Of a stretch of 64,000 nucleotides of DNA, positions 1 through 63,328 are shown in pieces. The translations under genes and the position numbers were made by a program. Under the pieces are notes generated by a model. That model was not told where the DNA came from. It searched no databases and saw only the letters and a list, made by a program, of their open reading frames with translations. Source of the stretch: Pezizomycotina sp. ARF18 (lineage: Eukaryota; Ascomycota); contig AZLU01000129.1 of assembly GCA_002224055.1 (NCBI GenBank), positions 54,186-118,185 of the forward strand, read 5' to 3'. Numbering within the stretch: the first letter of the stretch is position 1; each line of letters begins with the position of its first letter.

Positions 1-691
1 TAGCTTCTACCAAGTTTTGATCGTGCATGAGTAGCTTTGACTCGAGGGTGGATAAGCGCGTCACAAGCTCCGGGTGCCCCGATGCCCAGCCATTATCCTT
101 CAAACACAGCAGGAGTAACCGGACGAAAAGAGCAATATGACGGTCGACAAGCAATCCGACATTATCTGGTGAAACACCAGCTACGCTGCCTGACTGAACT
201 GCCGACGTCAGCTCCCTGGTAGCGTGTGCAACGAATATCAATATGAGATCCTCCGCTCTTCGGCTTTTATTCACGCTACCCCTCACTCGGTTCCATTAAT
301 TGGTTAAGGAATACGGCAAAGGTCCTCCTGATGTTCGCGTCATTGTACTCGCGGTTTGCTTCTCGGCCGGTAACAACACCTCCAGGCGTTTCTGCAGCGC
401 CGTGAGGAACTCGACTTTGGGCAGCTTGGTGGACCTGCTGGCCCCGGTGCGGGTGAACTCCTGCATAATATCGGCGGCAGAGCTGGAATAAGATTTGCGC
501 GCCGGCGCTGGTGCGGCTACCGTAGTTGTCACGCGGCGTCGGGGCTGAAGCAGGTAGCTTAGGAGACCAACCCTGAGGGCATAGCTGTAGCACTCTTCCG
601 TTCCCACCGTGAATCTGCTGCGGCGATTGCCGGACATCGTAGACATTGCGCTCTGCTTGCGAGCTATATAGTTTCGAGAAGCGGTCGACAT
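1..691 (-). CDS. UNC-13/MUN-type C2 protein, N-terminal part (runs off window)
   Basis: Reading the minus strand, three successive frames give one colinear protein. RRSRFTVGTEECYSYALR lies near 640-580, TGREANREYNDANIRRTF near 350, and LVDRHIALFVRLL near 110. The order and wording resemble the N-terminus of fungal UNC-13/Munc13-like proteins (Ync13/Git1 group), which carry C2 and MUN domains and act in vesicle tethering and septation; this is from family memory and only the N-terminal part is present. Two frame changes are needed, one near 380-395 and one near 275. The ATG at 691 opens the frame, but ATGs at 646 or 637 sit closer to the conserved block and are equally likely starts. The gene continues beyond base 1. 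Confidence 0.55.
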
Positions 692-1053
692 TTTTATTTG
701 ATTTTCTGGTTCGTGCTCCTATCCTTCTTTACTTCCTTCTTTCCTGCCTTCCTCCTTCTTGAGCCCTTAATCTTTGTGAGTGTTTACTAAGAACGAGGGG
801 CGATCAGAGACGTGAACGGGGGAGATGGCGGTGCTTAGAAAGAGAGCTACCCGGCGACAAGCGGGGGAAAATAAAAGCGATGCTAGGGGGTGCAAAAGAG
901 ATCGTCAACAGCGCCGCCTACTTCCTGTGCCTCGCAGCAATAAAAATATATTAATATTCGTATAAGTAAACGATCTATAGCTTATAGTAACAGCAATAGG
1001 ATAACGCGATGAAAAAAAAGGCAAAGTTGACGTGAACAAACGTGAACGAACGT

Positions 1054-1054
<1 letters not shown>

Positions 1055-1092
<38 letters not shown>
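1055..1092. repeat. T38 homopolymer
   Basis: Uninterrupted run of 38 T, the longest homopolymer in the window. Its true length cannot be trusted without length-accurate reads. Confidence 0.95.
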
Positions 1093-1093
<1 letters not shown>

Positions 1094-1268
1094 GTGCCGA
1101 TTTTCGAAAGCGTGATAATTTAATGGAAGAATATATCGATAACTTTTTGGACGCTACGTCCCCCACTCGTGTGTAATTCTATACCTATTTGGTATTATTA
1201 GGGGGAAGAAGCAACGACAATCCCCACAAAAAAATAAATAAATAAACCAAGTCTATAGTCCTTTGAGT

Positions 1269-1804: not shown

Positions 1805-3652
1805 AAGCGCCTGGATTGAAAATAACATATCAGTAAGCTGGGTAGGTAAGTAAATACTTAAGCAAGTACTTAAGCAAGTAATAAGGAAATAGAGGTGGAT
1901 ATAGTAGATACTTAAGTAAGTTTTTGAACTCTTCGCAGAAATCGTTTGTTAAACTTTTAGCATTTGGTCCCCCAAGGTGCTGGTAGCACAACCAAACAGG
2001 CTGTTCAATAGGAAAGAACCCTTGTATATAGGGAAGGGTTTAGCGGGGCTGCCAAATCCATCGAAGTAGGCCAAAAAAAAAAAAAAAAAATTCAGCTCCT
2101 CACAAATCCGGACGACATATTATATGAACGAACACCTATTAGAAGTACCATTCAAGCTCTAACCAAACTAACAATTATTATATATCAACTTGCTACGTAT
2201 ATCAACTTGCTACGACCTCGTCGAAACCCCCCCCCTTTTTTTTTTAAAAAAAAAACAAAAGGATAAGCTGGTTGATAGAGTAGTAGATAGTGCTTAGTCT
2301 CGCTGTGCTGATGCAGCTGCGGCTGAGATTATGTTACTATTAGTTAAGCGAACAACGGACCGGTTTCATATCAAATGGTTACTGGCCAGAGAGGATTTTA
2401 GAGCTGTATGAAGCCCACTCAAAACAGTGACGTCGTTAGCTATACTACTTATTAGATAGCTAGCTCTCCTCAGCAACGAGTTAATAATGATAATAGCTGC
2501 ACTTGAATGTAACATTTCCCCACCTTCCCCCCAGATCCGTTTAGGGGTCAATCAATACATGGCGACGTTGTGGCTCGTCGCCCATTAATAATAACAACAA
2601 GCTCTATATAGATTATTAAAATGGAGACAAATATCAGAACAGGGCCTTTGCTTTCAGCGCGATATTTTTTGGAAAAAAAAAAAAATTAAAGGAAAAAAAG
2701 GCGACAGATTTTAGAGCCTACACTTGCAATCGAGAGAGGGCGGAAATCGCCTGAGACTTCTCACAATCATTCGAAGCAACATTCCAATCGTCAAAATTCA
2801 AAGGGAATTCGATTCGTCGAAAAGTGCTCAAATAAGCAGAGCTTCGTACAAGAATAAAATCAACAATTTTTCACGGATCGGCGGGTAGGAAACGAAAAGC
2901 AGATGCCGTTGTGAGTATGGTTTGTTTACTCACCAGCGTCCAGTTCGGATCAACCGCCGACATCCAATTAAGAAGAAGAAGCAGCATGCAACCCCAGCAA
3001 ATTAGGATACGTAGGTGTTCTGGGAAGAGGAGAAGTAAGTAAAACCAAAAAAATCAAAAAAAGAGACAAAGCGCAGTTCTCGCTTTGCGAGTCATCCATC
3101 CATCCTTCTTGCTTTTTTTTGGTTCGATCATGACTACCTATTAGTACCGCTTTCCCCCTTACAACAAAGCTTGGATCGTCAGAATTTCAGTCAAAGATAA
3201 GATACCTCTGGATATAAGGATGAAATAGGTCCTTGTGAACGTAGCACACAATTCACCTACTTGAACTCAATATAGGGTCCTCAGCCTTAACAGCCAAAGT
3301 GGTACCCAAAAAAAAAAAAAAAATAAATAAATTTGAGCCCCGTGGCCTCTGTTCTTGGTATCTGGTCACTTAATAGTAATAATCAATAATCAATAATAAT
3401 AATAATAATAATAATAACAATATTAGTATAACTACAATAATAACATGTAGAGAGGCTTAGGCTTGATATCACGCCAGCAACCTATAGCTAGGGAAAATGA
3501 GAGCGTGCACCTGCGTTGTCCAAGCAGGTCACATGGCCCTTTAGACTTGATACTAGTTGCTTGACAGTCTCGAAGCAGATTTGAGCGTGTTTCTTACCTA
3601 CTTAGTAACGATGCTTAGCACCCCGCGGATCATCTAAGTAGTACCTTTGGAA

Positions 3653-3791
3653 TTTATTTATTTATTTATTTATTTATTTATTGATTGATTTATTGATTTA
3701 TTGATTTATTGATTTATTGATTTATTGATTTATTGATTTATTGATTTATTGATTTATTGATTTATTGATTTATTGATTTATTGATTTATTG
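3653..3791. repeat. TTTA tetramer run passing into 8-bp (TTGATTTA) tandem array
   Basis: A 4-bp TTTA run (about 3653-3682) changes through one TTGATTGA junction into about 13 nearly perfect copies of an 8-bp unit TTGATTTA, ending at about 3791. It lies in intergenic DNA. Confidence 0.93.
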
Positions 3792-5971
3792 ACCTTTTTC
3801 ACTAAGTATTAATTACCAGTGCCTCCGTTATGAGGGAAAAAAAATCCTGGCCGCTGACTTTTTAGTTTCACGGACTCGAAGCGGTAAAAGTCGGCGTGAA
3901 CCTACTTGATCGTTGTAAATTTACTCTAGGGTCGCTTGGGTAACTAAACACTTAGAAAGCACCAGAAAGCGATGCGTTTGGGCTATTATTTGATCAAACG
4001 TATATCTTATTTATCTATTCTTTTTTCGAAATTTCTTTTTTTTCTTTCCTTTTTTCTTTTTTTTTTCTTCTTTCCTTTTTTCCTTTTTTTTCCTGTGTGA
4101 GGGGGTTGGTGGTTCTGGTGGATATTTCCTTTTTTCGATTTCGTCATCATACATCATCGATATTTCGATTTCAACCAACAACCTGCGTCATAGGCGCGCA
4201 TCAAAAAAACCCCCCCCAAAAAAAAAAAAAAAAAAAAAAAAACTTATACAGAGAAAGAGTATTTGTGATTTCGCAATCCAATCCAGAGGGCTTAGGATCT
4301 CCTTTGATCCTTGCAATATCGTCTCTTCCCTTTCCTTTTTCTTTTCTATACATACTCTTTTAGTTTCGTTTTGTCTTTTATCACCCCTTCTCGCTGCTAA
4401 CGTTCTATAGTAAATATTTCCGCATCTCCGTACCCTCGTCTTCGTCGCCTTCGTCTTCTTTCAAATAAAACCCCCGCGCGTTGTGGAATTCCTATTATTT
4501 GAACAGGCATTTGCTGTAATATTGGTGAGCATTGGAAACCCAAGAAGACTGCGGCCAATTGGATTATATTCGAAGGAGGAAAATCAGGAGGAATCCCCTC
4601 CTTCCTTTTTTTTTTTTTTTTTTGAGGAATACCACGAGATCACTTTGTTCTCCCGGGGGTCAACGCTGCGGCAGGTAAAAAAAAAAATAAAAAAAAGATC
4701 AGCCTTTCTCTCCGAAAGCGCACGAACTCCGCCAATTGTTGATCCTCATGGTATATAACTTTGAGCGGGAATTTTACTCCTTCGACGATAAGTAAATAAG
4801 AATAAAAACTCTCAACTCCGTAACGGTTAAGAAAAGGAAGAGAAGTGGAGAAGACCGGAAAAAAATTTTCTTTTTGAACACTGAGTTTTTTTGAGACCAC
4901 TTTAGGAAATCGTAATTTTAAATTTTTTTTTTTCCGACAAAATATAATTAAAAGAAAATAAAGATTTGTGTTTTTATTCAGAAAGATTAAGCGATATTTA
5001 TTGATAAAGAGTGAAAGTAAAGCTACTTGAAGGCACAACCTTATATATAATAATACAAATTCTAGCGGATATATATTGTTGTGTAATAGGACTGTGCACG
5101 CTGGGTCGGAGTCTCCCCTCTTGGTTTGTATGGGGCCACCATATAAATAAGAAGGGAGTTACCATATAAGCTAATTCCTTTCACAAAACATTCTACTTCA
5201 TATATCTTTTGTGCATCATGCTGTACCATGATAATTTATATTTTTTAATAAGACTAGATAATGTTTGTTTATAAATATTAAATACTTATATTAAATAAAT
5301 GAAAACTATATTAATTATTTTTTCTGAGTAGCAAATATAAGTAACTATTTGAAAAATCCAACTACCCTAGTCACACCGTTTCCTCCCATGATGTTCAAGG
5401 CTGTCCTAGGCCAGACCCTTTTTTTTCCTCATGCAACCTTTTTTTTTTTTTCTTGATAGGTATCGAACGGCCTCTCTTACCCATTAGATGGTCTTACCTA
5501 ACTTGATCTTTGCCAGCATGCCATAGTTCTACTATATACCAGAGCAACACGGGGCCTTTGTATAGGGCGATTTAGGTAGGGCGGTGATCACAGGTGGTAA
5601 AAGTAATAAAATCCTGTAAAAAGTTACATGTTGTTTATTAACTGGTCACAAAACCGCATCCTCCAATGCTTATTTGTTTTCCTAGGGAACGCTGAGTATT
5701 AATCAACCTTTTATTATCGGATTTGATCTTCACTTTGCTCTATTGCAGCGGTTTTTATAATATATTGTAAAAATTACTTAGGTATTAATTAAAAACTGTC
5801 TAGAGGATCGATAAAAACAGGGACCTGGTTAAAAAAAAAAAAAAAAAAAAAGCAAACAAAATAATAAGGAAAACCACAGGACTTCTTTTGTGTATTACAA
5901 GGGGAGAAAAAAACCAGTTGCGAATAACTAAAAAAAGAAAAGAAGAAAAAAAAAAAAGAGTTCAAGATCTT

Positions 5972-19165: not shown

Positions 19166-20982
19166 CTAACTTTCCGAGCTCTCCAAGCATCAAGTTTTTA
19201 TCCGAGGACGCAGAGACAACTAACCGGGAACACAGATATAATGGTTAGTGGAATTGCAAAATGAAGTAAAAGAAAAGTATATAGAGAAGGGTATTCCGAC
19301 GTTCGCCCTCCCCCGGAGGAGGTAATTTTTAAATTTTTTTAAATTTTTTAAACTTTTTAAAAAAAATTTTTTTATTTTTTTTTATTTTTTTTTTTTTTAA
19401 AAAAAAAGTGCATACTACCCGCACTATCCAAAAAACAAACAAAGAGGAGGATTCACTATAGGTTCTGATCCTGGCATAAACCTGACATCGTTGACTGTGG
19501 CCTTTGTGACCGGGAAGCTTATAGAGTATCTTCTTGAATCTTCGTCCATACAACCACGCTCCTATCGCCGCTGCCCAGCTGCGATTTGTCGCCCTTTGGA
19601 GACCAACTCGCCCGGATAAAATTTTTGTCCAACCCGGCCGGTGCACTTCATAAACCTTCAGTAATCTGTCCGATGCGGCGAGTGGCTGGATGTCCCATGT
19701 CCGCACGGTGTTATCCATAGAATTCGAAAGTAGCTGCTGCCGTCTGGAGAGACTGCAAGAGAGGTAATAGTATCGTGGTGTCCTCGTAGAAGGCTGGAGG
19801 CGCCCGGCTTGCGCAAATCCCAAACCTATTATGAAAATAAGAAAAAGTTCTCGTCAGTTTTTCAAGATTTACATAGCGAGAAAGAAGCCCTTGCTGTTTT
19901 CGCTCTTCTTTCAGACTGGAAGGACTAGGTTAGAAATTACCGTAATATCATTTATCCCCTGTATACAGTTCATTTCCAGCCTCGCTGACCGCTAGCGCTG
20001 TAATCGGAAAGCTAGTTTCAATGTAATCGACGGCTTCCTTCGATCGAGGGTCCCAGATTCTATGCTTCCGTCGTCGCTCCACTGAATATCAATTCCGGCC
20101 CCGTCTGTTATATCGAGCACATTGACGAAATTCTCATGGCCCACATGACGCCTAACTCTCGTTCCAGTCTCCACATCCCAACTTGCGACGAGGAGGTCTG
20201 CCGAAGCAGAAGTATATATTGCGGGAATCGCGCGACCACTGTAAGTCCAAGACCGCTCCACGATGTCCGGTCATCATACCGTAGTTCTCGCATTCGCCGT
20301 GTGTATTCCATAATACTGGTAAACAGGGTAATTTGTTAAAAAACAGGCGAATAATAAAGAAAGATAGAAAAGGCGAACTTACATATTGCTTTGTCAAATG
20401 AGCCAGACGCCATGTGTTTCCCACTCGAATCGAACCGTACGGCGAACACCTCGCCCTGTGTTGAAGTATGATGTCAGCTTTGTATGTAAGGGGTAAGGCC
20501 TAAAGATAAATCTCTCGATGACTCTCGGGATGTTGTCTGAAGACTTCGAAACATACACCATGACTAAAACAAAAATTAGCGTTAACTCAAAGGCTCGACA
20601 ATTATATCACCCTCGAAAGGCGATTCTGTTAACGCCCAAGAAGCGCTAAATCTGTAAGAAAGAGTCACACGAACCTGCCAATTCCATTATAGGAGCTTTT
20701 AGCGAGCTAGTCCTGGGAACCTACGAAACGCCGACGATGTACAAAGGTTAGCAAGTTCCATCTCGACAGCATACATAGCTGGCGCGGAAAAGCCAGTGTC
20801 GGCCAGTAAACAGAGCGACAACTTACGGATTTTATTAGCGCTCCAACTGCGGAACCCTGTCCCGGAGACAGTGAGGCCGACCCGGCATCGCGAGGGACAG
20901 ATTTTTGTCTCTTGACAAGTTGATTCGAGGTTGTTAGGTAAGCAGAGTCATCGCTCGGCGCTTTCCGTTTATCCGTTGCCAT
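19166..20982 (-). CDS. SNRNP40: U5 snRNP 40 kDa WD40 protein (SNRNP40/Spf38)
   Basis: A WD40 propeller subunit of the U5 snRNP/spliceosome in the nucleus. The start is ATG 20982 (MATDKRKAPSDDS), with a basic nuclear segment LVKRQKS. Exons: 20827-20982, 20675-20720, 20383-20455, 19941-20315, 19825 to about 19462, and a last exon 19166-19219. Diagnostic pieces in family order are SSLKAPIMELAG, GEVFAVRFDSSGKHMASGSF, LLWNTHGECENYGMMTGHRG, SWDVETGTRVRRHVGHENFV, LSNSMDNTVRTWDIQP, LYKLPGHKG and, in the final exon, SASSDKNLMLGELGK. At least five single-base shifts are needed (for example after DSRNIY, after SDDGSI, in ELYTGG, in GSSYF, in PGHKG). The two residues expected before GEVFAV are missing, so a micro-exon may lie in the 219-nt second intron. 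It is divergent from BET3. Confidence 0.87.
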
Positions 20983-21430: not shown

Positions 21431-22445
21431 ATGTCTTCGGCAATGAGAGCTCGGATGGGAGAAGAGTAAGTCGAGCTCTGCTATAAAACGGCCTTCCATC
21501 TCCCTTCCAGTGTTCCATTGCGGGCGCAGGGATCCTTCCTTTTTTTTTACCGAGTGCTGATATTGTCCTTTCCGACGGCATCAGCGTTTGGAAGACGAGG
21601 ATTGATAAAGTGGTTCGTTGGAGGAATTTCTTCCCTGCAAACACAATGCCAAATGCTCTGCTAATACTGCGCACTTGTGCTACCCTTTATTATTCGAATC
21701 CGGCATAGAACGCGGAGCTTGTAACCCTCACATATGGCTCGATCGTTGCCCAGCTCTGTAAAGACTTCGAGGGAGACTATGTCGAAGTCACAAGCAGCTC
21801 GAAAAAATGGGGTACAATATCGGCCTTCGACTGATAGAGGACTTCTTGGCAAAAAGCAACATGCAGCAAAAGTGCGCGAGCTTTAAAGATACTGCTGAGG
21901 TTATATCAAAGGTGTGATCCTTAGTTCTATATTATAGCCCCAACGATGGCGGCTTTGAACCTCTGAATAACGAAGCCTAGCTAAACTCTTCGTTTTTTTT
22001 TTTTTTCCTCTCTTTGCTGAAACTTATAGGTGGGGTTCAAAATATTCTTAAATATTACCCCCGCGATTACAAACTGGAGCGCCGACAATAAGCAATTCTC
22101 TCTCATGTTTGAAGAGAATCCTTTGGCCGATTTTGTCGAGCTACCCGATGACGGAAAGGCCCAGACTGAGCTGTGGTACTCTAATATTCTCTGTGGCGTG
22201 CTTCGAGGCTCATTAGAGATGGTGGGTTACATTGGTTTCGCAGTTTCTTCAACTTTTTCCTTTTGCGTTGAGTCTTGATTATTGAGCGATTCTGTTCTAA
22301 CTTGAGTGTCTTGAAATGCGTTAGGTACAAATGCAAGTGGACACACACTTCACAAGCGATGTCTTGAGAGGTGAACGATACGACGGAGATGAGAGTAACA
22401 CTCATTCGGTATATTGAAGATGAATTGCCTGCGGATGATGAATGA
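21431..22445 (+). CDS. BET3: TRAPP complex subunit BET3/TRAPPC3
   Basis: A core subunit of the TRAPP tethering complexes, which activate the Rab Ypt1/Rab1 in ER-Golgi traffic. Five exons: 21431-21465, 21585-21612, 21709-21911, 22030-22221, 22325-22445. All joints are in phase with GT-AG ends. The protein reads MSSAMRARMGEDVWKTRIDK, NAELVTLTYGSIVAQLCKDF, MGYNIGLRLIEDFLAKSNM, KVGFKIFLNITPAITNW, NPLADFVELPDDGKAQTELW, SNILCGVLRGSLEMV, MRVTLIRYIEDELPADDE. This covers the whole expected length of about 190 residues. Two single-base faults are visible: one A is missing in ACAAG at about 21789 (expected VTKQLEKM), and one base is missing or extra at about 22383 before EMRVTL. Both leave the flanking protein perfect. 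Confidence 0.94.
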
Positions 22446-25868: not shown

Positions 25869-28800
25869 ATGAGCCAAGGCGAAAGAATGGCGATGAATAT
25901 GAATAACATGCAACAAATGAGCAACATGAATATGGGTGTTGGGCCGTTCCTCCCGGTGGCGCGCCGAATGGTCCGGGGGGACCGCAAATAGCCGGAAATC
26001 CTTGGAAATATGAACGCTGCTCTTCCTATGGGAAGAGGAACAGAAAAAACGCTTCTTAATACCTACATCTACGAATACTTCCTAAAACATGAGATGTTCG
26101 ACAGTGCTAGATCACTACTGAACGAAGGCGACGTTTCCACGATTGCTAACAGTTCTAGTCGTCGCCAATCACCCTCCCGACGTCAAAAGCATGACGCCGA
26201 TGGCAATCTACTCAATGCATCGACGATCTATGGATACTGATAGGAAAGAGGAGGGTGAAGGAGGGAACGCAGAGGAGATGACCTCCTGCTCCCAAAGTGC
26301 CGGTTGATTGTCCTGGCGGCTCCTTTTTTCGACTGGGTGGGCTTGTTTTGGGATATATTCGGCGCCAGGACGAGCAAGCAAGGTAGCATAGCTGCGATGA
26401 CCTATCTCAACTCTACACAGGTTTGTCAACAATCCTTCATTCACCAATCGGCTTCTCTGTCTTTTTTTATAAGGAGGAACATAAAAGGGAATATATTAAC
26501 ACCAAGTCTTAGAACGCCCAGCGAATGCAACAGGAACAGCGGCAGCGATTGATGCAGATGGGTCAGATGACGCATCTGAACCCTCAGCAACAGCAGGCAT
26601 TACTTGCTGCCAATGGGCAGATTCAAGGACAACTGATGAGTGCCCCAGGGTATCCCAATCAGATGATGCGTATACAGAATGGCGGTATGAATCCCGAAGG
26701 TGCCCCGCAGATGGATATGTCCAATCTCAGCAAGCAACAGCTTGTTAGGCAGGCGATGGTGAATAACACTAAACGAAATTCATTTCCACCTACAGCGTAC
26801 GTAACGAATTCCCGGCTTTATTTTCTTTTTACTTTCTCAAACAATATACATATCCATACTTGTGTGTCTTGGGAAGAGAGAGATTGTTTTGGCGTTCTCC
26901 GCATGTTATTGAAACTTGTAAGCTAATCTTTTCTAATGTTGCTCGGCATATCTGCGGACCAAAAAGAACCCCCAACAAATCGCTCAATTAAAAACACAGC
27001 AAATGATGCAGCAGCAAATGCAACGTGGACAGTCCGGAGAAGGCGACATGAATGGCCCCAGCGTCCGCAATCCCCGGCGACCGGTCAAACTGCCCCGTCG
27101 CCTTCTAAACGTATGCGCGTAGAGGGGAGTTTCAGCCTGGGAACGGCCGCGGCCAGCCTCAGCCAATGACAACCGCCTCTCAGGTTCAGGCATCGCAGAT
27201 GCTCCTCCAAGCCGGTATTAACCCTAACCAGCTTACTCAGCAGCAGTTTTTGCAGTTCCAGGGATCCAACCCCGAAGTTCAACAAAAGTCGATCCAGGCG
27301 TACGCTCAAAACCTAGCAAAATCACCAAAGAAGTCAACTACCGAAGGAGGGATTCCTAATGCTCAAGTCGGAGTAACTGCTGCTCACGGAGCGCGATGAT
27401 GCATCAAACCTCAGCAGATGGAGGACCGGGAGGCACCATGACTGACTTTTATGGGGCGCAACTCAACCACTGACTCGGGCAATGAGGGACAGGTGGTAAT
27501 CACGCCTTGCAGGATTATCAGATGCAGTTGATGCTTCTTGAACAGCAGAACAAGAAACGGTTGATGATGGCGCGTGCAGAGCAAGACCAGGTACAACTCC
27601 GCGGAAATGAACCCCGACCAGACGGGTCCGTCGCCTTCCAAGGCATGTCGCCAAACGCGAGCAGGCTGCCCCTTCACCCCAACCGTCGCAAGAAATGAAA
27701 GGAGAACGCCGAAGATGGGTGCGCAACCGGGACCGGGATCTCCGCTTCCTGACGGTCAGATGCCAGTGCAACGAGGTTTCACCCGCTGCGATCGCAGCGT
27801 TCAATGGACAGGTCTAGCATCATCCACCTCTCCGCTTTATATTCTTTGGGGCCACCTCACTAACTTGGCTGAATGAACAGCCTAATATGCCAAATGGGAA
27901 CATGATGCGGCCTCCCAGTTCACATCCCGGAGGGTTCAACGGACAAATAGCGCCACATCTTGGCGACAGGCCATGAATCCGGCTCTCCGGCAACAGCAAC
28001 AGCAGCAAGCTGGACGAGGACAGACGCCTCAGATGTGGCAGCACGGTGCTCAATCTGCACAAGCGCAGGCTGCCCAGCAGCAGATGCTCAGCTTCAACAG
28101 CAGCATCAGGCTCAGCAGCAGGCTCAACAACAGGCTCAGCAGCTCAACAAGCCAACAACAAGGTCAAACTCCACAAGGCCAGCAACCACAACAACCCCAG
28201 GGACAACAGCCGAATCAACAAGCCCAACAACCCCCGCAAGGTGGACCGCAACAAGGAGGACAAGCTCAACCTCAGTCTATCGGCACACAAGTCAAACGAG
28301 ACAGACTATTCCCCATCAAGCGATGCCTCCTCCTTCCGCTCCCGCAACTTCGAATAACGGACGGCCATCGTCGCCGCAGCCTAACCAGCCGCAACCACCG
28401 ACACCAACCCAATCAAACAAGCCTAATCCGAGGAAGAAAGAAACAAAGGATACAACACGCAAGGTAAGCGTAAGTTTTCCCCATCCCATCAGATGTCCTT
28501 CCAACTTTTATTTATCTTATTTTCTTTTCTTATTTCTATTCCTTTTGGAGCTTTTTCTTATTTTCTTTTTCTTTCTCTTCCATTTTGTGATCTGAAGCTG
28601 ACAAAATCTTATTCAGAGGTCGAACAAGAAAGCTCCGGCAGCTGCTGCCACAACGGCTCCGGCGCCAAATGCTGCAACCCCTTCAGAACCACCTACCCCA
28701 ACTACACCGATTACTCCGCATCCCCCCGTTAATTCGTTTAATGCGCCTAATATACAGACGAATAAGAAACCAGGCCGCAGCCGGGTTCCAGGGTAATAAC

Positions 28801-38412: not shown

Positions 38413-40016
38413 ATGTCCGTACTCATCGAGACATCCGCGGCGACATCGTCCTTGATCTCCACGTCGACTATGCACCCAAGACCTGTGAAAACTTTTTAAA
38501 GCTCTGCAAAATCAAGTACTACAACTTCTCACCGGTATACAACGTCCAAAAGGGGTTTTCGTTTCAGACGGGAGATCCATCGGCCCTGGCCACAAGGAGA
38601 GCGACGGTGGTTCCTCGATATGGGGCGTCCTATCGGCCCTATAAAAAATATTTTCCGGCTGAATTCCACCGAAGCTCAAGCACGCCGAAAGAGGGACGGT
38701 TTCGATGGCAACGGCACCTGCCGAGGATGGTGGTGATACCAGGGTGTGCGCGTCGCAATTCATCGTAACCCTCGGCGACAACTCGAGTACCTCGACGGCA
38801 AAAGTTCCATATTTGGCCAAGTCGTCGAGGGCCTGGATACCCTCGAGAAGATCAACAACGCCTTCTGCGACGACAAAGGGTGGCCGCTGCAAGATATACG
38901 GATCAGGCACACGATTATCCTGGACGACCCGTTTGATGACCCGGAGGGTCTAGTGGAGCCGCAGAAAGCCCGCGCCGTCAAAAGCCCAGCTGAGACCGTG
39001 CGCATTGGCGAGAACGAGAACCTACACGAGGAGGAAGATGAAGAGACCGCTGAGCGGCGCCGGCGTGAGCGCGATGCGCAGGCCCAGGCACTAACTTTGG
39101 AGATGGTCGGAGATCTACCTTTCGCCGACGTCAAACCCCCGGAGAACGTCTTGTTCGTTTGCAAGCTGAATCCTATAACGCAAGGTATGGGAGAGATACT
39201 AGAAATCTTGTTGTTTTCTCTTTTTCTAAATATTCGTTTCGCTAAACAAAATTCAATGCAGATGAGGATTTGGAGCTCATCTTCTCCAGGTTCGGGAAAA
39301 TACTGTCCTGCGAAGTAATACGGGAAAAACGTACCGGCGAGAGCCTCCAGTACGCTTTTATCGAGTTTGACGAGCAGAAAGACTGCGAACAAGCTTATTT
39401 CAAGATGGATGGCGTACTGATTGACGACCACAGAATTCACGTCGATTTTTCGCAAAGTGTAGGTTCTCATGTTTCCGCCTTTTAGCAAGTGTTTAAAAAA
39501 AGAGCCGCTAATAATGAGTTCCGTTCCTCTAGGTATCTAAATTATCCGATAGCTGGAGAAAGATACGACTGCCAAGCGAAAAATGAATGCTGGGCTCAGC
39601 GGCGGTGGGTCGGCGGCTCTTCGAGGCTGGCTAAGCGCAGTCAGTACCGCCAGGATGACCGCCGGTCAGACAGGGTAAATCATCCTACGATATGGTATTC
39701 GACGTCAACCAGGAGGAGCGGAGAAGTAAGAACGGTCACGGTGGCGGCCATGATCGACGCGATAAAGCGGATGAGCACCGTCGCGGAGACCGCGAGAGGG
39801 ATCGCGATAGGGACCGTGATAGGATCGTGACAGAGATCGCCACCGCCACCACAGCAAAGATCGCGATAGGAAGAGGGATCGTAGCCGTGATAGGGACCGC
39901 GGTTCCCATAGGAGCTACGATTCCGACGGCACCGCTCGAGAAGTCGAAGTCCAAAACATAAAAGCTCCCATAACCACCGAGACCATGACCGTGATGGGTC
40001 TAGCTATCGTCGGTAA
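38413..40016 (+). CDS. cyp6: Cyclophilin-RRM peptidyl-prolyl isomerase-like protein (CYP6/PPIL4)
   Basis: A nuclear cyclophilin-like protein associated with RNA processing. The ATG at 38413 gives MSVLIET, then [40 protein letters not shown] (PPIase-like fold), [30 protein letters not shown] and [19 protein letters not shown]. An RRM follows, with [14 protein letters not shown] and, after an intron (about 39184-39261), [39 protein letters not shown] and [10 protein letters not shown] second intron (39460-39531) leads to SKLSDSWRK and an Arg/Asp/Ser-rich RD/RS tail ending DRDGSSYRR with a stop at 40016. Frame breaks: one base missing near 38437 (ETSRGDIVL expected), others near 38580-38700, 38790 and in the tail. 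Like other PPIL4 proteins it may lack isomerase activity. Confidence 0.9.
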
Positions 40017-42735: not shown

Positions 42736-43848
42736 ATGCCGGCTACGACAACAACAGCGACAATAACAGCGGGAAAGGAGGATTAGGAGGACTACCTTCC
42801 AAGGTCTCGGACTTCTACGTCCTGCCCGTTGAAGTACCTGCGGCGATCGAATCTTGGGCTCCGTGCTACCACCACCTGTACCTGCGCCGTCACAGGGCGC
42901 AATACACCTACCAGATTGGCGCGGACACAGCATCAACGGACGATCACTGTACGCGGTCAATGTGCCGGTAGATTCCACCCTCAGTCACTTTCGTGCCATA
43001 TTCTCTCGTCTGAGCGGTGCCCGCGTCGAGACCGTCATCTTCGAAGACGAACCCGTGCCGAAGGGGCTGCGGGCTGCGGCAAAAAAGGACGATCAAGAAG
43101 GACAGAAGCGGTTAGGATTCCAGGGTCCCTCCAAGAAGCGGAAGCGGCAAGCTGAGGCGGCTTCGGTAGACTACTTGGAGGCCTCAGGCTTGCCGAGGGT
43201 GTGGGACCGTGCCGTCCACCGGTGCGGATCCTCGCGGTCATCGTCTTTGTGGACACCGCCGGGTGGAGGCGACCTTGAAGGTGCTGAAGAACCGCCCGCA
43301 GTCTCTGGAAGCGTGCACCAACAAAAAAATTTTGTGGGGGATGGCGTGGGTGAAGGGAATCAGGTGCCAAATTTGGGCTCAGCGCGTAAGAAAAAGATCA
43401 CTTTCACGCTTACTTGATTTAAAAAGCTTTTTCTATATTATTTGAAACTTTTACTAATGAATTTTATATCACGGTCGCACAGGCTACGAGAACCATCGGC
43501 GGCTAATATATCCAGACATGGACGAGCTGCTTGTCAATATTGACAAGGTGCTGGCATCCTACGACATCGAACAGGCTGCTATAGAGGAAATTCAAAATAG
43601 GGCTGCCAACGAACCGACGAAGACGGCTTCGTGACCGTCGTCCGCGGCCGAAAGCGCGAGTGGAGCCAACTACACCCGAAACCACCAATAGCAAGAAGAA
43701 AGCAGCGTCCGTTGGGAAGGGCATGTATTCGGATTTCTACAGGTTCCAGCTACGAGACATGAGGAAGCAGCAAATGAAGAATATCCTGACGAAGTTTGAA
43801 GACGATAAGCGGAAAATCAAGGATCTAAAAAACAAGAGGAAGTTTTGA
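42736..43848 (+). CDS. RRP7: Ribosomal RNA-processing protein 7 (Rrp7)
   Basis: A nucleolar factor for 18S rRNA maturation in the small-subunit processome (UTP-C/CURI complex). The start is ATG 42736 (MPATTTTATITAGK). The order is DFYVLPVEVPAAIESWAPCY, a short RRM-like segment SLYAVNVPVDSTLSHFRAIF with SRLSGARVETVIFE, then VEATLKVLKNRPQSLEACTN, an intron (about 43386-43482) and RRLIYPDMDELLVNIDKVLA. The family signature C-terminus is MYSDFYRFQLRDMRKQQMKN with DDKRKIKDLKNKRKF, stop at 43848. Single-base breaks: near 42778 (AAAGG), 42935, 43225 and 43617. The C-terminal Rrp7 domain is complete, so function is likely intact in the organism. Confidence 0.88.
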
Positions 43849-46216: not shown

Positions 46217-48356
46217 TTATACGCCAGGAATTTTCAACTTCGTAATATCCAGCCCATCCTCGATTTCCTTCTTAGGAGGCATTTTGCCAGCACGAATCAG
46301 TTCGCGAGCATATGCCATTACAGGGTCCGTCTGCATCGTCGCACGGCAATGACAGTTTGACCTTTCGTAAAGTAACTATTATCTTCGAGCGTTAGAATAT
46401 CTAATTATTAAAAAAAAAAAAAAAAAAAAAAAGGGTTGGGCTAACAAATACAAAAGAGAGGGTAACGTACGCTGAGAACTTATTCTCGTCTAGACTGCCT
46501 TGATAACAATATCGTCGTAGTCTCCTCCATAGCCACAATAACGTAACTGAACTCCTAGCGCAGACCAGAATACAGGAACAAATTCCCTTGGCGTCTTTCC
46601 AGTGGCGATGTATTCGCCAACGATCGACCCGAATTTTGAGCAACGGCAAAATGCTCAATTCTACGTTTTGGTTGTTGTATGGATACGTGGCGATGTCGCC
46701 GACGGCGAAGACATCCTCTTTCCCTTTAACTTGGAAGTTCTCGTCTACGAGGAGTGAACGGTCCTTCTGTAGCAGCGAAGAGTCCAGGTATGAAGTTTCA
46801 GGAGCCACGCCAACACCCAAGATGACAAGGTCAGCGTCCAATTTCTTCCCACCTTTGAGTATGACTGAGCCAACTTTGGAGCTGTCGGATCCTAAATTTA
46901 AGAAAGATGCCGTCAGTATCAAAGACTGCAGGGTCGTAACGAGGAAGATGGATATCTAACCTGACGGCTCGGCGCTTTCAACCGTGGTTTCCATTTCGAA
47001 GGAGACCTTCTTCTTCTCCAGTAGCTTCTGGAAGGTCGCGCCGATCTCCTTGCCGACAACACGTTGCCTGTGAAACGGGGACTTAGCAGGGTTACGGGAC
47101 TAGAAATGGGATTTTTTGGTAATGACATTTAAACTCACATTGGAACTTCTTCCATACCGACAACAACGACATCGTGCTTCTTTCCCTCCAGCGCATTTGC
47201 AACTTCCATTCCGATGAAAGAAGAACCGACTACGACGATCTTCTTCCCGCCTTTATCACCGGCTGCCTGCATGATCTCCTGCACATCGTCTATCGTCCTC
47301 AAGACGAAGATGTTTGATAAGGTTTTGAAGCCTTCAATAGGGAGTTTCCTGGGAGTACCTGTATTTAGACCATGTGTTAGCTTCCTGCGATTCTCCGGAA
47401 TGTTTCTTATGGGGTAAAAATACCTCCTGTGGCGAGAATAAGCTTCTTGTAAGTATAAGTATCGCCTTTCTCGGTCGTCACCTGGTGCTTATCAAAATCG
47501 ACGCTCTTCACGACAGTAGCGTTGTGCACCTTCACGCCCAAATTCTTGTAGAAATCCGCGTCACGGAGGAGGATTTTGTCGGCATCAGTAATCAGTGCCT
47601 TGCTGAGCTTGGTCCTGTCAATTGGAAGATAACTCTCTTTTGACAGAACCGTGATAGTACCCTTGAAACCAAACTGGCGCAACCCTTCAACAGCACCGAC
47701 ACCACCGCTCCCACTAAACTAAGCCATCAGCAATGGAATTCCTTAGAGCGTTAGGTTTTATGAACCCGAAAATTAATGGGAGCTTTTTTCTCTCTCTTAC
47801 CCTCCGACAACCACAACATCCGCACTGGAATCATCCGTGGTAGCGGCTTGGACCATGTCTGGTGCACGTCGGCCAGCTTTAATCTTGGATTCTTCGGCCT
47901 TGATGATCACATCATTGTTATGAAACCTGACTGGGAATGAGTGAAGCGCATCCAATCCTGGACCATCTTCAATCTCTCCGGTGCTAACTCTGAAGCAGGA
48001 TCCGTGACTATCATTTGGTTGGAAAAAAAAAGAAAGGTTAGTCTTGTCGAATAAGTCTCTTCCTTATGCAAAAGAAAACCAAAAAAAAAGAAGAGAAAGA
48101 AAAGAAAGACGGGGAGGAACGAAACGAAATAGATTCTACTTACAACGGACAAGTCAGTCTCCCGTCGAGCGTCAGTACACCTTCACGAGGGGGAGGTTGT
48201 AGTGCGTGCACAGGTGCGAAGTCGCGCGAACCTCGTTGTTGTACTGCACCAGAAGAACTTTAGAGTCCTTAATGCCTTCGACCTCGCATTCCCTCATGAA
48301 CCCGGGTGGAGTTCGGAAGCGGAGACGTTCAAAAGCTTGAAATCCGAGGCGGGCAT
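46217..48356 (-). CDS. Rieske-type AIF/AIFM3-like FAD oxidoreductase
   Basis: An apoptosis-inducing-factor-like flavoprotein with an N-terminal Rieske [2Fe-2S] domain. The start is ATG 48356 (MPASDFKLLNVSASELHPG). The Rieske motif is SHLCTHYNLPLVKG (C-T-H), then TCP, an intron with a GTAAGT donor, and HGSCFRVSTGEIED, giving C-P-F-H across the splice. VVVVGG is the FAD-binding loop. The body includes RQFGFKGTITVLSKESYLPI, DRTKLSKALITDADKILLRD and KKLILATGG. The NAD-binding region reads KKIVVVGSSFIGMEVANALE, with DADLVILGVGVAPETSYL and DVFAVGDIATYPY (second FAD motif). The C-terminus is SYFTKGQTVIAV, DPVMAYARELIRAGKMPPKK, LDITKLKIPGV, stop 46217. At least five introns and several single-base breaks (for example at about 48310 and 46345) are present. 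Confidence 0.88.
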
Positions 48357-49050: not shown

Positions 49051-49158
49051 TACTAAATACTAGATACTAAATACTAAATACTAAATACTAAATACTAAAT
49101 ACTAAATACTAAATACTAAATACTAAATACTAAATACTAAATACTAAATACTAAATAC
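49051..49158. repeat. 7-bp tandem array (TACTAAA), about 15 copies
   Basis: After one TACTAAA and one variant TACTAGA, the unit repeats about 13.4 times without a mismatch to 49158. It is intergenic. The unit is not a known fungal telomere repeat (TTAGGG-type). Confidence 0.93.
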
Positions 49159-52535: not shown

Positions 52536-54292
52536 ATGAACAGCGACCTAAATTCTGCCTCAAAATACGTCAATAATCTTCTTGCGTCCCGAGGACTCTT
52601 GAAGGATGGGATACCGATCCCCTTTGCGAACCCTGGCGAAAGCGACGATGCCGCAATGAGAATACTGAACCTCGTCCACGACCTCATCAACAAGAGAGAC
52701 GTAAGTAGATGCTTTAGGAGATGTCATGCGAACAAAAGTTTTCAAAGGGGAATAAAGGCGCTGACTTGGGATTTCAATCACATACACAGCGAGATGCGGA
52801 GCACAGAGAAAGCCTCGCAATGACGGTGCGGACACTGAAGGCGGCGGAGGAAAGCACTATGCGAAAATTGTAAACAATTTATTTAACTTTTAGCCTGGAC
52901 TGCATTGTTCCTTTTCTTTTCTTTTTCTCCTTCCTTCCTTTCTATCTTTTTTTCTCTCTCACCTAGGTCATCCCATTAATAACTTCTCCCTGTAGGACCG
53001 GCTCAAAATCAGCTGCGACGAAATGAACCGCCGGTGCGCAATCCTCCAAGGCCAAGAAAGGATCCTCAACTCAACGGCACGGACGGCGGAAGCCCGCGCG
53101 AAATCGCTCAAGGACGAATCTGCCCGCCTGAAAATCCTGACCCAGCAGGTGCGCACGCAGTGCGCGAACGACATACGGAAGCGCGACGTGCAGATCTCGC
53201 GCATGAAAGAGAAGCTGCTGGATGCGTCGAGGGAGGGAGGGTAGCGGCAGCAGGTCGTCGGCTGCTATTATTCCGGGCGTTACGCTGTCAACTTCCGCAT
53301 CGGCGTCCATGTCTGCATCGGCGATAGGCAGCAGGCAGCAACACCAGCTGGACTACGACGCCAGGACGGATCCTTCGCTAACCAGTGAAACCACAGCGTT
53401 TTAACGCAGCTGTCGCAATCGCTCTCGGACGAAAACGAAACGCTGGCGTCGATGATACGCAACGCCGTCTCGACCATCAAAGCCATCTCCGGTATGGACT
53501 CGTCTGATGACGGCCGTGAAAATAACGCCGACGGCAGCGACGACGGTGGAGAGGTGGCAACTATGAAGATGAACGACTCGTTACAGCTAGGGACTCTTCG
53601 CACGCGACGCTAGCGCGCGAGATGGACCATGTACTGTACGAGCTCAAGGAGCTCCTGAACCAGCCCAACTACGTACCCATCGAAGACTTGCTCTACCGCG
53701 ACAGGGAGATCGATAGGCTGAAGACGCAGGTTAAGGGTCTGCATCTGGAGTGGAGGAAAGCGATAGAGCTCGTCGAGATCGTGAATAGGCGGTCCGCGAT
53801 GCTTACAGCGAAGGAGTCTTCTGTGCTGGATAACGTGATCGAGAAGGGGAAGAGGACGGTTCTGGAAGAGCTTCATTTGAATTATGAACCGCCGCAGTTA
53901 GCAGCGGGGCAATGGAAAAGACAATCCTAGAAGAGGAGGAGGACAACGACGAAGCCGACCACACGGTGCGCGGGGAAGAACTCGACTTTGAAGCAGAAAT
54001 ATCGCACCACCTCGCTGATCAATCCTATATCACCTAACGTCTTGGAGGATAAGAGCTATATGGAGCAGTTCTCCCCGATCCGTAAAAACACTGGGCCAAA
54101 TGTGAGTAGCTTACACCCTTTGTGAAGAGGGAGAAGCCGGAATTAGTACACTAACATAACTCTTTCCTCTAGGATTCTAATATTCAGACCCCATCAATCT
54201 TGAAGCCCACGTCTTCGGCAATCAGGAAACCACAATCTATCAAGACTAACAAACGACTTACCAAAGTGAATGCACCTCTGTTAAGACGATAG
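52536..54292 (+). CDS. Afadin/alpha-actinin-binding (ADIP/Msd1/SSX2IP) coiled-coil protein
   Basis: The ADIP-domain family includes fission yeast Msd1, which anchors microtubule minus ends at spindle poles. The ATG at 52536 gives MNSDLNSASKYVNNLLASRG, LLKDGIPIPFANPGESDDAA and RILNLVHDLINKRD, the conserved N-terminal block. An intron (52699-52789) leads to a short exon with DREHRESLAMTVRTLK-type coiled coil, and a second intron (about 52871-52995) follows. The central coiled coil is NRRCAILQGQERILNSTART, TQQVRTQCANDIRKRDVQIS and MKEKLLDASREGG. The C-terminal half has LNQPNYVPIEDLLYRDREID and ELVEIVNRRSAMLTAKE, with the tail exon ending TKVNAPLLRR at 54292. Four or more single-base breaks lie at 53235-53620 and 53910-54040. 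Confidence 0.85.
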
Positions 54293-54802: not shown

Positions 54803-57272
54803 TCAATCGGCTTTGATTGCACTGTATTGCACAGAAAAAAAAATGAAGGCATTAGCGGTCGGCAAAACAGTATAAGAGTAACCTCAAAGAGAAGGGGGGA
54901 GTAGGAGGGGAGAAGAAAGGGGGGGGGGGGGGGCTGGTTGTGACAAAGAAACCAACAGCACTTACATATATATCTGTCGCACGAACGCGTACGACGCTAG
55001 GAAGCCAATGGTGCCACCCAGGATCCCAAAGATCGCGCAACCCAGGAAGCTGTACCCGAAAAAGAGCAGCCCGCTCACGAAACCCTGGATGTGCAACCTG
55101 GTGAAGTAGTACCAAACACTATACAAGAAGATCCAAACCGCGCTACCGCCACCGACGAGGAAAGAGCGCCACCACCAGTGGTGGTTCTAATCGCACGCAG
55201 TAATTAGCAATCCAACTTCGCTGTCCCAGAGAAGCAAGAAGAAAACGAAGGGGGTGGTGGGTTGATTAATGATGATGACCTACCTCGGCGCACAATTGGA
55301 AGTACGTAATGACGATGGTAATCTCGACAATGGTAACGAGAAGGATCAGCACGATAAGCGCTAGAAATCCGTACATGTAGTAATACCCGCTCTTATCCTG
55401 CCAAATGCTCTTGAACACAAACAGGAGCTCGATGAATATGACCGCGAAGGGTATAAGGCCACCGAGGAGCACGCTGGGAGTGTCCTGAGGTAGAAAGGCT
55501 GCGTGGGGATCTGCCGCGGTATCTGAGTGGCTCTAGTCGGATGCTCGTACGGGTTTGCTTGAAGCCATACCAAGTTCGAGTATGACCAGCGGCAAGGAGA
55601 TAAGCAGCCACATGCACAAAAGGCCAGCAAGGTTGAGAAAGGTAAAGCGCTGGAAGACGCTTGAGCCCACACGAATAGGTTGAGAACGAAGACGATCGTG
55701 AAAGCCGTGCCAGGTATAAGCAGAGCCGTCTACATAAAAAATCGATAGGTTAGTATAGTACCGCTTACATTGGTATGCGATTATTTAAGGACGAGAAAAG
55801 GTCACTTACGAGGAGAGCGTTCTTGAACCAATTTTCGCCGCCGAACGTTTGGTAAACCCTTCCTGAAAAATATCCGCAGAAGGCTCCCGCGAAGACGAAC
55901 AGGAACAGAGCGAAGCTAATAAATCCTCCTCTGTAGCTCGGGTTCAAAACGCCAACGGCGGCCAATATCAGCAACGCCGTAAACGTAGCGAGAAGCTGCG
56001 CACCGCTCCCGATGATTGGGGCGAGCAAGCCTCCGAACCGTGGCGGGCGGAACACGTCGCCATGGACCAGTTTCCAGCCGGTGACGTCGTCGATCAGCTC
56101 TTCGTCCTCCTCCTCGCCGCCTTCACCATCTTCTCCCGCACGCTCGCCGATCGGCGCAAGTCGCTTCATCGGTCGTGGGACGTCTCCCTCGACACCCTTC
56201 TCGTTGTAAGTCTGAATATCTCGGCTCAGGGTCCGCACCAATACCACACCAGTCATGGCCGTAAGCATGAACGCGATCACGACGGAGTTTATTATAGCCA
56301 GCCAGTGGATCTTGGACGATTCCTCGTTGTTCACAAAGTAGAGGTCCACCGGTTCGACCATTCGATCGAGTTGTCCTCCTCCCAATAGACGGAATAAGTA
56401 TAAGGGATCCCAAGCTTCGCATCGTCTCCACCTTCAGCTGATAGCGCAAGCGGAGGGGCGGCTGCTCCTTTAACGATTCCGGGCAAGCACCTTCGGGGCC
56501 GGCAATGGATTTCGTGTAAACTTCGAATGCCACAATGACCTTTTTATCCCGATCTTTCGCACTATTCCGGTATCGAATGAGTAAAGTTACGTGATTATTT
56601 ATGTAAGCGACATCGTTGTTGAAGTATCCGAGCTTGAATCCTGCTGCGTAGTATTTCCGGGTCTTGTCGACAGTCGTAAACGGCGTTGCTCCGGGGAGGT
56701 TGTCAACTATCCTGTTTTATGATTAGAATCTACAACCAAGATACAGCCTTTGATTTCTTTTCCTCATTTCTGCGGAGAGAAATGGCTAAAAGGACGGAAA
56801 GAAGAGCTTCGCGCGATCGTTCTAGCTTAAAGGTAAAAAGCTTCCGTGGTAAAGAAGAGCAGCACCAATTGCAACCTACCATTCAACGACGTAATTATTC
56901 GCTATCAATTCCTTCGCCCGGTCTACCTCAGCTTTACCAACGACCGGTCGCAAAGGTGTTTGCACACCTCGTTCTGTCCCATGTGTAGCTCATAGTCACT
57001 GCTGACAATCCTGTCCCCACGTAATACTTCGCCAAGATTCAAGCCGTGATGTTTTCCGCCTTTGATCTTACACACGAACGGTAGCTCGTAGTATGAGTAT
57101 GGTAATTGGGTGTTGTCGGATGTCGCCTTGTTCACGAAGAGTGGGACCTTTTCGTCTTTCGCGTACGTTCTTTCGGAGAAGCCTTTTTTGTGATAGTTGT
57201 CCCGTAGAATGGGATTAGATCGAGTGGTTAGCCGCAACGAGAATGGAGGAGCACATTGACAAAAGAAAGGAA

Positions 57273-57305
<33 letters not shown>

Positions 57306-57423
57306 GAAAAAAAAAATCAAAAATCAAAACAAGAGGAAAGTGAAATACCTGGTATGTAGAGGCATCGGATAGGCGACAGAACGTTACCAGAGTGACTAGG
57401 AAATAACTTCGTAGTAGCCCCAT
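54803..57423 (-). CDS. EMP70/TM9SF (nonaspanin) multispanning protein
   Basis: A nine-TM Golgi/endosome membrane protein of the TM9 superfamily, linked to membrane-protein sorting and adhesion. The start is ATG 57423 (MGLLRSYFLVTLVTF, signal peptide); the upstream in-frame ATG at 57486 is less likely. An intron (about 57223-57346) precedes VPLFVNKATSDNTQLPYSYY, GLNLGEVLRGDRIVSSDYEL and HMGQNEVCKHLC. The membrane half contains MVEPVDLYFVNNEESSKIHW, LAIINSVVIAFMLTAMTGVV, DVTGWKLVHGDVFRPPRFGG, NPSYRGGFISFALFLFVFAG and ENWFKNALL. An intron, further TM exons and SGLLFFGYSFLGCAIFGILG follow. A 19-nt last exon (54803-54821) after a CAG acceptor completes QIYIAIKAD, the usual lysine-containing cytosolic end. 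Several single-base breaks; a G tract (about 54920-54932) lies in the last intron. Confidence 0.92.
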
Positions 57424-61454: not shown

Positions 61455-61628
61455 TTCGTTCCGCAATGAGGAGTATATTCCTCAAAAGAAAAAAAGAAGT
61501 ATCGAGAAACAAGACAGAGGTGGATGTTAGTAAAGGGTAGACGATGGAGGGAATATTGGTATAGGTGGGTTGATGGGTCTTAAAGACTCGTGGGTGCGGC
61601 AAGTATATGTTGAGTCCTTTGTTTGTTT

Positions 61629-61663
<35 letters not shown>

Positions 61664-62697
61664 CCTCTCGAATTGAAAAAGGGAAAAAGAAAATAGAAGT
61701 AATAATAATTAATTTTATTACTTATTATTTATTTTTGGATTTGTGTTCTGTATTTTGAGTAGAGAAATAACTATAAATACACAAAGGGAATTAATTTTAT
61801 TTATTTTTTTTATTTTTTTTTCCCCCTTTGGTGTGGAGCCAAGACTTAAACATCGTCTCAAGTTCCCAAGAGCCAAAGAATTAACTCGGTAAAGGGGAAG
61901 CAATTATCTCACCAGAAGCAACAATACTACGATAGTAGTATAAGTAATTAGGATATTAAATATATATATATTCGGCGAATAACGGATAACAATAATAATT
62001 CAAGGATTGAAAGTATAACGAGAAGGAGTTAATGTTGGATCCAGAACAGAATAGTGCGGGAGAGAATAGAAGATCGAATATATCCCGTTGGTACTAGACG
62101 ATACGATCTACTTTGTTCTAGAATACCTCGAAGAGTTTTCCCACGTATAACGTGATTATTATACCTATATCCATTCAGGTGCCAACGGCCTTTTAGTCTC
62201 GGTAAAGTAGGTGAGTATATCATTTGCCCTACAGATAGAGTAATTGTTTTTTCTCCACTTCGTCACTTGAATGTAGTACCTACTCCGTCGTACAGATTGG
62301 CTTGTATACAAAGAGCGATACAATTAGGTCACGCAGGCGAAAACAGAACTGTATAACCAACCAACTCCAGAGGGAACATGTATATATAAATAATAAATAT
62401 AAGCCAATGTTAGAGAAATATATATATATATGTGTGTGTGTGTGTCTATATGTATATATCTCTCTTACACATGCTATTAGTGTACAGTACACAGGATGCA
62501 GGCATCCAAAGATCAAGAGAAAACGTTGTTTCTATCTAGCCCGCCTTTCGGACAAGGGTATATTGGCGAGCCCCAAAAATACAACGACAGGTCGGAGAGC
62601 GATCCCAAAAACCTGGCGTTCTTTCTCTTCCCTTCTCTCTCCTCTACCGAAACTACTCCTCCTCCTACCGCCTTCCCGACTACCTATCCTTGGTCAT
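61455..62697. other. AT-rich spacer, no gene seen
   Basis: It holds a T34 tract (61630-61663), T-rich sequence at 61795-61825 and (AT)/(TG) runs at 62420-62446. A plus-strand open frame entering from 62302 continues antisense through the SCP2 gene and is not considered real. Confidence 0.6.
61630..61663. repeat. T34 homopolymer
   Basis: Thirty-four consecutive T residues upstream of the Nup2-like gene. Confidence 0.95.
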
Positions 62698-63328
62698 TTA
62701 CAGCTTGGCCTTGTTCTGAGCCTTCTTGAGGACAACCTCGGCCTTGGTCGCCTTCATGATGTCACCCTTGACCTTCAAACCGCCGGACATGAAGAGCCGC
62801 TGGGCCTTCTCCTGGCCCTGGACGAGTTTCCAAAATTCTCCTCGGAAAGCGAGAGGATGACTAAGGGAGAAAAAGAAAAATTGCCAGTCAGCACCATATT
62901 GGCTTTTTTTATTTCCCATCTTCTTTGTACATGTAAATTCCAAGCGGAGGAAAGGTTAATGATAACACTTACTGTCCGGCTTGGCACCCTCAGGAGCCTG
63001 TCCCTTGCCAACGGTACCGGTCTGCTGAGATCGATGAACCAGCTCTCCTCCTTGCCGTTCTTCTTCAGCGTGAAGCAGAAGATAGCGTTTCCCTTCTTGA
63101 TAGCGTCCTTCTTCTCGGCCTCGTCCTGCAGGGCAGCGGAGATGAAATCGAAGGCGCGGAGGAAGGGAATTCGTCTGCAGCATGATGTCAGTATAATTTC
63201 GGCGTGCAATAGATTCATTTATACTACTGTTTGACGCGTCTCAAGCGGCTAATCGCATGCAGTACAGCATTACTGAAGAATGCACACACTGAAGTTGGAT
63301 AGGATAACGAACCGTTCTTGAGAGACAT
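62698..63328 (-). CDS. SCP2 sterol-carrier domain protein, peroxisomal (POX18-like)
   Basis: A small peroxisomal lipid-binding protein with one SCP2 domain, like the oleate-induced POX18 of yeasts. The start is ATG 63328: exon 1 reads MSLKN and ends at a GTTCGT donor (63316). Exon 2 begins after CTGCAG at 63175 with EFPSSA, then FDFISAALQDEAEKKDAIKK, GNAIFCFTLKKNGKEESWFI, GTVGKGQAPEGAKPD. After an intron (about 62860-62970) come LSLSEENFG, KLVQGQEKAQRLFMSGGLKV and KGDIMKATKAEVVLKKAQ, ending NKAKL at 62698. The C-terminal tripeptide AKL fits the PTS1 peroxisomal import signal. Single-base breaks occur near 63155, 63040 and 62845. The length of about 130 residues is normal for the family. Confidence 0.9.

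What the first reader, a model, noticed from the sequence alone, without database searches (positions are those of the whole stretch)
1..63328. Nearly every conserved gene is broken by single-base frame changes
SNRNP40, BET3, SomA-like, CYP6, Laa2-like, RRP7, AIF-like, arrestin, ADIP, TM9, Nup2 and SCP2 all need 2-10 one-base shifts, while their splice sites, motif order and flanking residues stay normal. Both losses (BET3 at about 21789, CYP6 at about 38437) and gains (SomA-like at about 25998) occur. Pseudogenisation would not hit a dozen essential genes evenly without substitutions or stops in frame. Uncorrected indel error in a draft assembly is the best explanation. Genome-wide programmed frameshifting is a remote alternative. 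Any automated annotation of this contig will be badly fragmented.
Basis: partly seen in the sequence, partly recalled or inferred. Interest (0 to 1): 0.7.

Follow-up and report, generated by a model that had tools for sequence, protein, structure and literature searches.

The report
Broken frames from assembly base-deletion errors
The genes in this piece of a fungal-looking draft genome appear broken because the assembly has dropped or added single letters, roughly once per 150 bases of conserved gene, and RNA genes and mitochondrial DNA show the same; this is a data-quality problem, not biology.

Summary
The window lies at the end of a contig of a 46.4 Mb, 408-contig draft that looks fungal. 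BET3 (about 21784 and 22376) and the cyclophilin/RRM gene (38437 and four more) need frame changes at the stated places. The defect is genome-wide: 10 of 10 conserved genes counted on other contigs (four HSP70, actin, two actin-like, two histone H3, polyubiquitin) carry 82 frame changes in 3,970 codons and no in-frame stops, against 0 changes in intact E. coli dnaK. It also affects DNA that no ribosome reads. Six near-identical nuclear 5S rRNA comparisons show 9 one-base losses, all in base runs. Two places of the mitochondrial contig holding the same sequence about 215 kb apart (probably overlapping ends of a circle) differ by 26 gaps and 0 mismatches over 3,075 columns, and by 56 gaps and 7 mismatches over 1,804. 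This is residual long-read indel error, mostly one-base losses. Programmed frameshifting and pseudogenes do not fit. Against: base runs left beside losses in genes are no longer than elsewhere, and in two diverged 5S copies only 3 of 7 losses lie in runs. Interest is low.

The parts
21706..22442 (+). BET3/TRAPPC3 gene in three exons: frame loss at about 21784, introns 21912-22029 and 22222-22324, frame change at 22376
   Evidence: Pfam TRAPP in two frames; PDB chains matched in two frames; frameshift-aware alignment (the change at 22376 only)
38413..39461 (+). Cyclophilin + RRM gene (PPIL4/CYP6 type): frame changes at about 38437, 38580, 38633, 38962 and 38993, 38633-38776 unresolved; intron 39185-39261
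   Evidence: Pfam Pro_isomerase in two frames, RRM_1 in one; PPIL4 chain 7qtt_V in two frames; alignment
55401..56349 (-). EMP70/TM9 gene piece, matches in three frames (cut by my query at 55401); introns and shifts not separated
   Evidence: E 1.5e-62, 1.3e-28 and 4.7e-18 in the three frames
46680..48267 (-). AIF-like oxidoreductase: Rieske piece (below its cut-off) and Pyr_redox_2 spread over three frames; introns and shifts not separated
52557..53220 (+). ADIP-domain gene in two frames with a gap between the pieces; introns and shifts not separated
19686..20470 (-).
   Evidence: weak matches; only PF00400 reaches its cut-off
43678..43845 (+). RRP7 C-terminal domain; an N-terminal match below its cut-off lies at 42935-43036 in another frame
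62725..62838 (-). SCP2 domain piece
25998..26129 (+). SomA-like (LisH) N-terminus: a second frame takes over near 25998; LisH at 26052-26129 below Pfam's cut-off

Best explanation
The frame changes are residual single-base insertion/deletion errors, mostly deletions, left in a long-read draft assembly that was not (or not enough) polished. In the organism the genes are most likely intact. Where two near-identical versions of a sequence can be compared, the errors fall mostly in runs of equal bases; genes, rRNA genes and mitochondrial DNA are all affected. Shown: frame changes in 10 of 10 conserved genes counted outside the window, no in-frame stops in them, the same kind of loss in 5S rRNA copies, and disagreement between two stored stretches of the same mtDNA. 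Inferred: the sequencing method, the missing polishing step, and that the two mtDNA places are overlapping ends of one circle.
For: Ten of ten conserved genes counted outside the window carry 3 to 20 frame changes each: 82 in 3,970 codons (60 one-base losses, 12 scored as two-base losses, 6 one-base gains, 4 two-base gains), with 0 in-frame stops and up to 97% identity to the reference (alignments). Intact E. coli dnaK, 52% identical to the same reference, gives 0 shifts and 0 introns with the same program. Nuclear 5S rRNA: six near-identical comparisons show 9 one-base losses, 9 of 9 in runs of two or more (41% of bases lie in such runs), 1 gain and 4 substitutions, of which 2 are at the last base; two of the nine losses are at the same place in two copies. 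Mitochondrial contig: the same sequence occurs twice about 215 kb apart. L042/L043 differ by 26 gaps and 0 mismatches over 3,075 columns, 23 of 24 one-base gaps in runs of two or more (57% expected, p 3e-5). L024/L049 differ by 56 gaps and 7 mismatches over 1,804 columns, 46 of 52 one-base gaps in runs (56% expected, p 5e-7). Shift places in four HSP70 copies do not coincide beyond chance (6 against 3.7 expected, P 0.15). Published long-read-only assemblies show the same (passages of PMC7500977 and of PMC12007338).
Against: In six of the ten genes, base runs beside 45 one-base losses are not longer than at 2,590 control codons (run of two or more 0.78 against 0.79; three or more 0.24 against 0.18). 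The test is weak, because a run that lost a base is shorter, but it gives no support. In the two diverged 5S copies (L075, L080) only 3 of 7 losses lie in runs; those copies may be decayed genes. Two polyubiquitin repeats share a shift at codon 35-36 and two at codon 3, so places are not wholly random; both lie at base runs, which homopolymer error also predicts. Raw reads, transcripts and assembly metadata were not available. L049 lies at the contig's end, where coverage may be low.
Confidence: 0.97

Rival explanations
1. Genome-wide programmed ribosomal frameshifting, as described for the ciliate Euplotes: the indels are real and ribosomes shift frame at them.
For: The frame changes are real in the stored sequence and the proteins on both sides are conserved.
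Against: Contexts are diverse with no shared stop codon or motif by eye. Up to 20 shifts occur in one HSP70. Places do not coincide between four HSP70 copies beyond chance. The same losses occur in 5S rRNA and between two stretches of the same mtDNA, which no ribosome explains. Euplotes shifts sit at stop codons and are mostly +1 (recalled); here most are one-base losses.
Confidence: 0.005
2. Insertional RNA editing of transcripts, as in Physarum mitochondria (recalled): the genome lacks single bases that are put back in RNA.
For: Most frame changes are one-base losses (60 of 82 events), and rRNA is also affected.
Against: Two stored stretches of the same mtDNA differ from each other, which editing cannot cause; 5S copies with and without the losses coexist; some gains also occur.
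Confidence: 0.005
3. Genuine pseudogenes, or a degenerating or hybrid genome with real indels.
For: Frame changes in every gene counted.
Against: 10 of 10 counted genes hit, including actin, histone H3 and ubiquitin; 0 in-frame stops in all ten; 92% (actin), 91% (H3 of C66) and 97% (ubiquitin) identity; 10 of 15 listed introns keep a CTAAC branch site within 35 bases of the acceptor. A DNA search with one 8 kb stretch of the window found no second long copy.
Confidence: 0.01
4. Mostly an alignment artefact: introns or divergence mistaken for shifts.
For: For divergent genes (actin-like, HSP70 of C208) some calls near gaps may be wrong. The aligner allows GT..AG introns only.
Against: 0 shifts in the dnaK control. 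In the five genes at 77% identity or more there are still 33 events in 1,532 codons, with conserved flanking residues.
Confidence: 0.01

Closest known systems
Frame-breaking homopolymer indels in long-read-only assemblies, e.g. the nanopore-only Drechmeria coniospora drafts (PMC7500977, passages seen)
   Same: Fungus; conserved genes broken into neighbouring open frames by small indels; errors mostly in homopolymers according to that paper
   Different: Method and strain of this assembly are unknown; here losses dominate, whereas that paper reports more insertions than deletions after polishing
Gene-fragmenting deletion errors profiled in MinION bacterial drafts (Kastor paper, PMC12007338, passages seen)
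   Same: Deletions tied to base runs of two to eight; over a thousand frameshifted genes in one draft
   Different: Bacteria; error sites there were found against reference genomes, with read data as a second step
Programmed +1 frameshifting in Euplotes (recalled; one search gave a listing only)
   Same: Many genes need frame changes
   Different: Here losses prevail, contexts are diverse, and non-coding and mitochondrial DNA are affected

Membership tests
Uncorrected long-read assembly error | Indels far outnumber substitutions between two versions of the same DNA | tested here: met
   26 gaps and 0 mismatches over 3,075 columns; 56 gaps and 7 mismatches over 1,804 columns
Uncorrected long-read assembly error | Indels fall in homopolymers beyond chance | tested here: met
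   mtDNA 69 of 76 one-base gaps; 5S 9 of 9 losses in six near-identical comparisons, but 3 of 7 in two diverged copies
Uncorrected long-read assembly error | Remaining runs beside coding frame losses longer than at control codons | tested here: inconclusive
   0.78 against 0.79 for runs of two or more at 45 losses in six genes; weak test
Uncorrected long-read assembly error | Non-coding sequence affected too | tested here: met
   5S rRNA copies
Uncorrected long-read assembly error | Raw or accurate reads disagree with the consensus | not testable with these tools
   no reads held
Programmed ribosomal frameshifting | Shift sites conserved in place between gene copies | tested here: not met
   four HSP70 copies: 6 coincidences against 3.7 expected, P 0.15; polyubiquitin repeats share two places, each in two of four repeats
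Programmed ribosomal frameshifting | A shared slippery motif or stop codon at the site | tested here: inconclusive
   diverse contexts by eye; no formal motif search was made
Pseudogenes | In-frame stops and loss of protein conservation | tested here: not met
   0 stops in ten genes; identities 34 to 97%, the low ones probably paralogues of the reference

The most novel reading that the evidence does not exclude
A small part of the recurrent sites (for example the two codon places hit twice in polyubiquitin) could be real bases missing from the genome and supplied in translation or RNA, hidden under a background of sequencing errors.
Probability: 0.005. Interest if true: 0.9.

Novelty: not a real feature. 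Interest (0 to 1): 0.06.

Why it matters
It matters as a warning. Gene calls, pseudogene counts, BUSCO scores or claims of odd translation based on this assembly would be misleading, and other findings from this window that rest on reading frames or exact base counts should be discounted.

Tried and rejected
Programmed frameshifting, insertional RNA editing and pseudogenes were considered and rejected (see rivals). A search for a second copy of window 50001-58000 in the genome found, besides itself, only short matches in two places of the query, so no haplotype comparison of the window was possible; the rest of the window was not searched this way. Family PF02121 gave nothing in the genome or in the controls, so that answer is uninformative. 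Rfam at gathering scores found nothing in the window, ARAGORN no tRNA. SSU rRNA (RF01960) was asked four times and never answered, so the organism is not identified. tblastn of a recalled yeast Cox1 against the 30 loci of the tRNA search (L024-L053) printed no match. The tRNA search scored only 63 of 1,606 candidates, so I drew no rate from tRNAs; the 5S search likewise scored 47 of 1,990, so its 15 copies are a lower bound. A PDB search with one TM9 frame found nothing.

Rows dropped before the count of ten genes: two further histone loci (L021, a weak H2A-like match with one loss; L022, no clear histone) were aligned but not counted. Of seven contigs with HSP70 matches four were aligned, of six with actin matches three, of the ubiquitin loci only the polyubiquitin one. 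Of 15 5S copies, two (L067, L068) had no gap against L066, six gave the counted losses, two (L075, L080) were diverged (7 and 15 substitutions; 7 losses, 3 of them in runs), three (L077-L079) were not compared, and two served as references (L066, L070).

Full report
What was claimed.

Setting. The window is bases 54186-118185 of contig 129 (118,185 bases, so it ends at the contig end) of a draft of 46,361,250 bases in 408 contigs. GC in the window is 38 to 49% per 4 kb. Fifteen introns in conserved genes of other contigs are 67-264 bases long; 10 of 15 hold CTAAC in their last 35 bases. The aligner allows GT..AG introns only, so the splice dinucleotides themselves are no test. The best HSP70 is 81% identical to recalled yeast Ssa1. 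I infer a fungus; the species is not identified, because the SSU rRNA search did not complete.

The window. BET3 was tested against PDB chains found by sequence. One frame reads the start of the conserved region up to about 21784-21795 and the next frame takes over at once. After two introns a further change lies at 22376; it is seen only when 15 recalled TRAPPC3 residues bridge the two PDB pieces, while without them the program chose a longer intron. The cyclophilin/RRM gene matches PPIL4 chain 7qtt_V in two frames and needs changes at about 38580, 38633, 38962 and 38993 and, with a recalled N-terminus, at 38437. A stretch from 38633 to about 38776 had few or no reference residues and reads one stop, so it is unresolved. 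EMP70, the AIF-like gene, ADIP and a WD40 gene fall in two or three frames, though there I did not separate introns from shifts base by base. Arrestin, Nup2 and SomA-like are not confirmed by Pfam, and Laa2-like was not tested.

The genome. I wrote a frameshift- and intron-aware protein-to-DNA aligner and used recalled reference proteins. In ten conserved genes on ten other contigs it finds 16, 20, 7 and 5 frame changes in four HSP70 genes, 4 in actin, 6 and 11 in two actin-like genes, 5 and 3 in two H3 genes and 5 in polyubiquitin: 82 in 3,970 codons, about one per 145 bases (alignments). In-frame stops: none in any of the ten. In the five genes at 77% identity or more the count is 33 in 1,532 codons. 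Intact E. coli dnaK gives no shift.

Outside coding sequence. The genome search lists 15 5S rRNA copies, a lower bound. Six near-identical comparisons show 9 one-base losses, all in runs of two or more equal bases (7 of 9 in runs of three or more, where 21% of bases lie), one gain, and four substitutions, of which two are at the last base; two of the nine losses share a place in two copies. The mitochondrial contig (22-29% GC in its loci, tRNA-rich) holds the same sequence twice, about 215 kb apart: tRNA-Arg at 5177 and 220581, tRNA-Lys at 15443 and 230805 (places, names). I take these as overlapping ends of a circle. The two pairs of loci differ by 26 gaps and 0 mismatches over 3,075 columns, and by 56 gaps and 7 mismatches over 1,804; 69 of 76 one-base gaps lie in runs of two or more. 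Real divergence would bring more substitutions.

Against the reading. In six of the ten genes the base runs left beside 45 losses are not longer than at 2,590 control codons. A lost base shortens its own run, so this test is weak, but it does not support the homopolymer claim for genes directly. In two diverged 5S copies only 3 of 7 losses lie in runs. Two polyubiquitin repeats are hit at codon 35-36 and two at codon 3, both at base runs.

Literature. Passages of PMC7500977 describe nanopore-only fungal drafts whose conserved genes were broken by homopolymer indels, and passages of PMC12007338 describe deletion errors tied to base runs. Other papers were seen as listings only.

Verdict. Ordinary residual indel error of a draft assembly. 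The platform is not settled: 38 runs of 15 or more equal bases stand in the window, which I would not expect of older nanopore consensus (recalled), but PMC7500977 reports that polishing can itself introduce long A/T runs.

Noticed in passing
G000:C50 (loci L024, L042, L043, L049): An A/T-rich, tRNA-rich contig of about 231 kb (length inferred from L049) that holds the same sequence twice about 215 kb apart: apparently an uncircularised, large mitochondrial genome.
   Followed up: partly
window, 38 places (e.g. 1055 T38, 16902 A32, 61630 T34, 54919 G15): Many homopolymers of 15-38 bases, all but one A or T; either real or partly a polishing artefact.
   Followed up: no
window 3652-3792 and 49051-49158: Two clean tandem arrays, 8-base unit ATTGATTT (17.6 copies) and 7-base unit TACTAAA (15.4 copies), without indels.
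   Followed up: no
window 46680-48267 -: Oxidoreductase with a possible Rieske piece (below its cut-off) before the Pyr_redox_2 domain, an arrangement I recall from AIFM3-type proteins.
   Followed up: no
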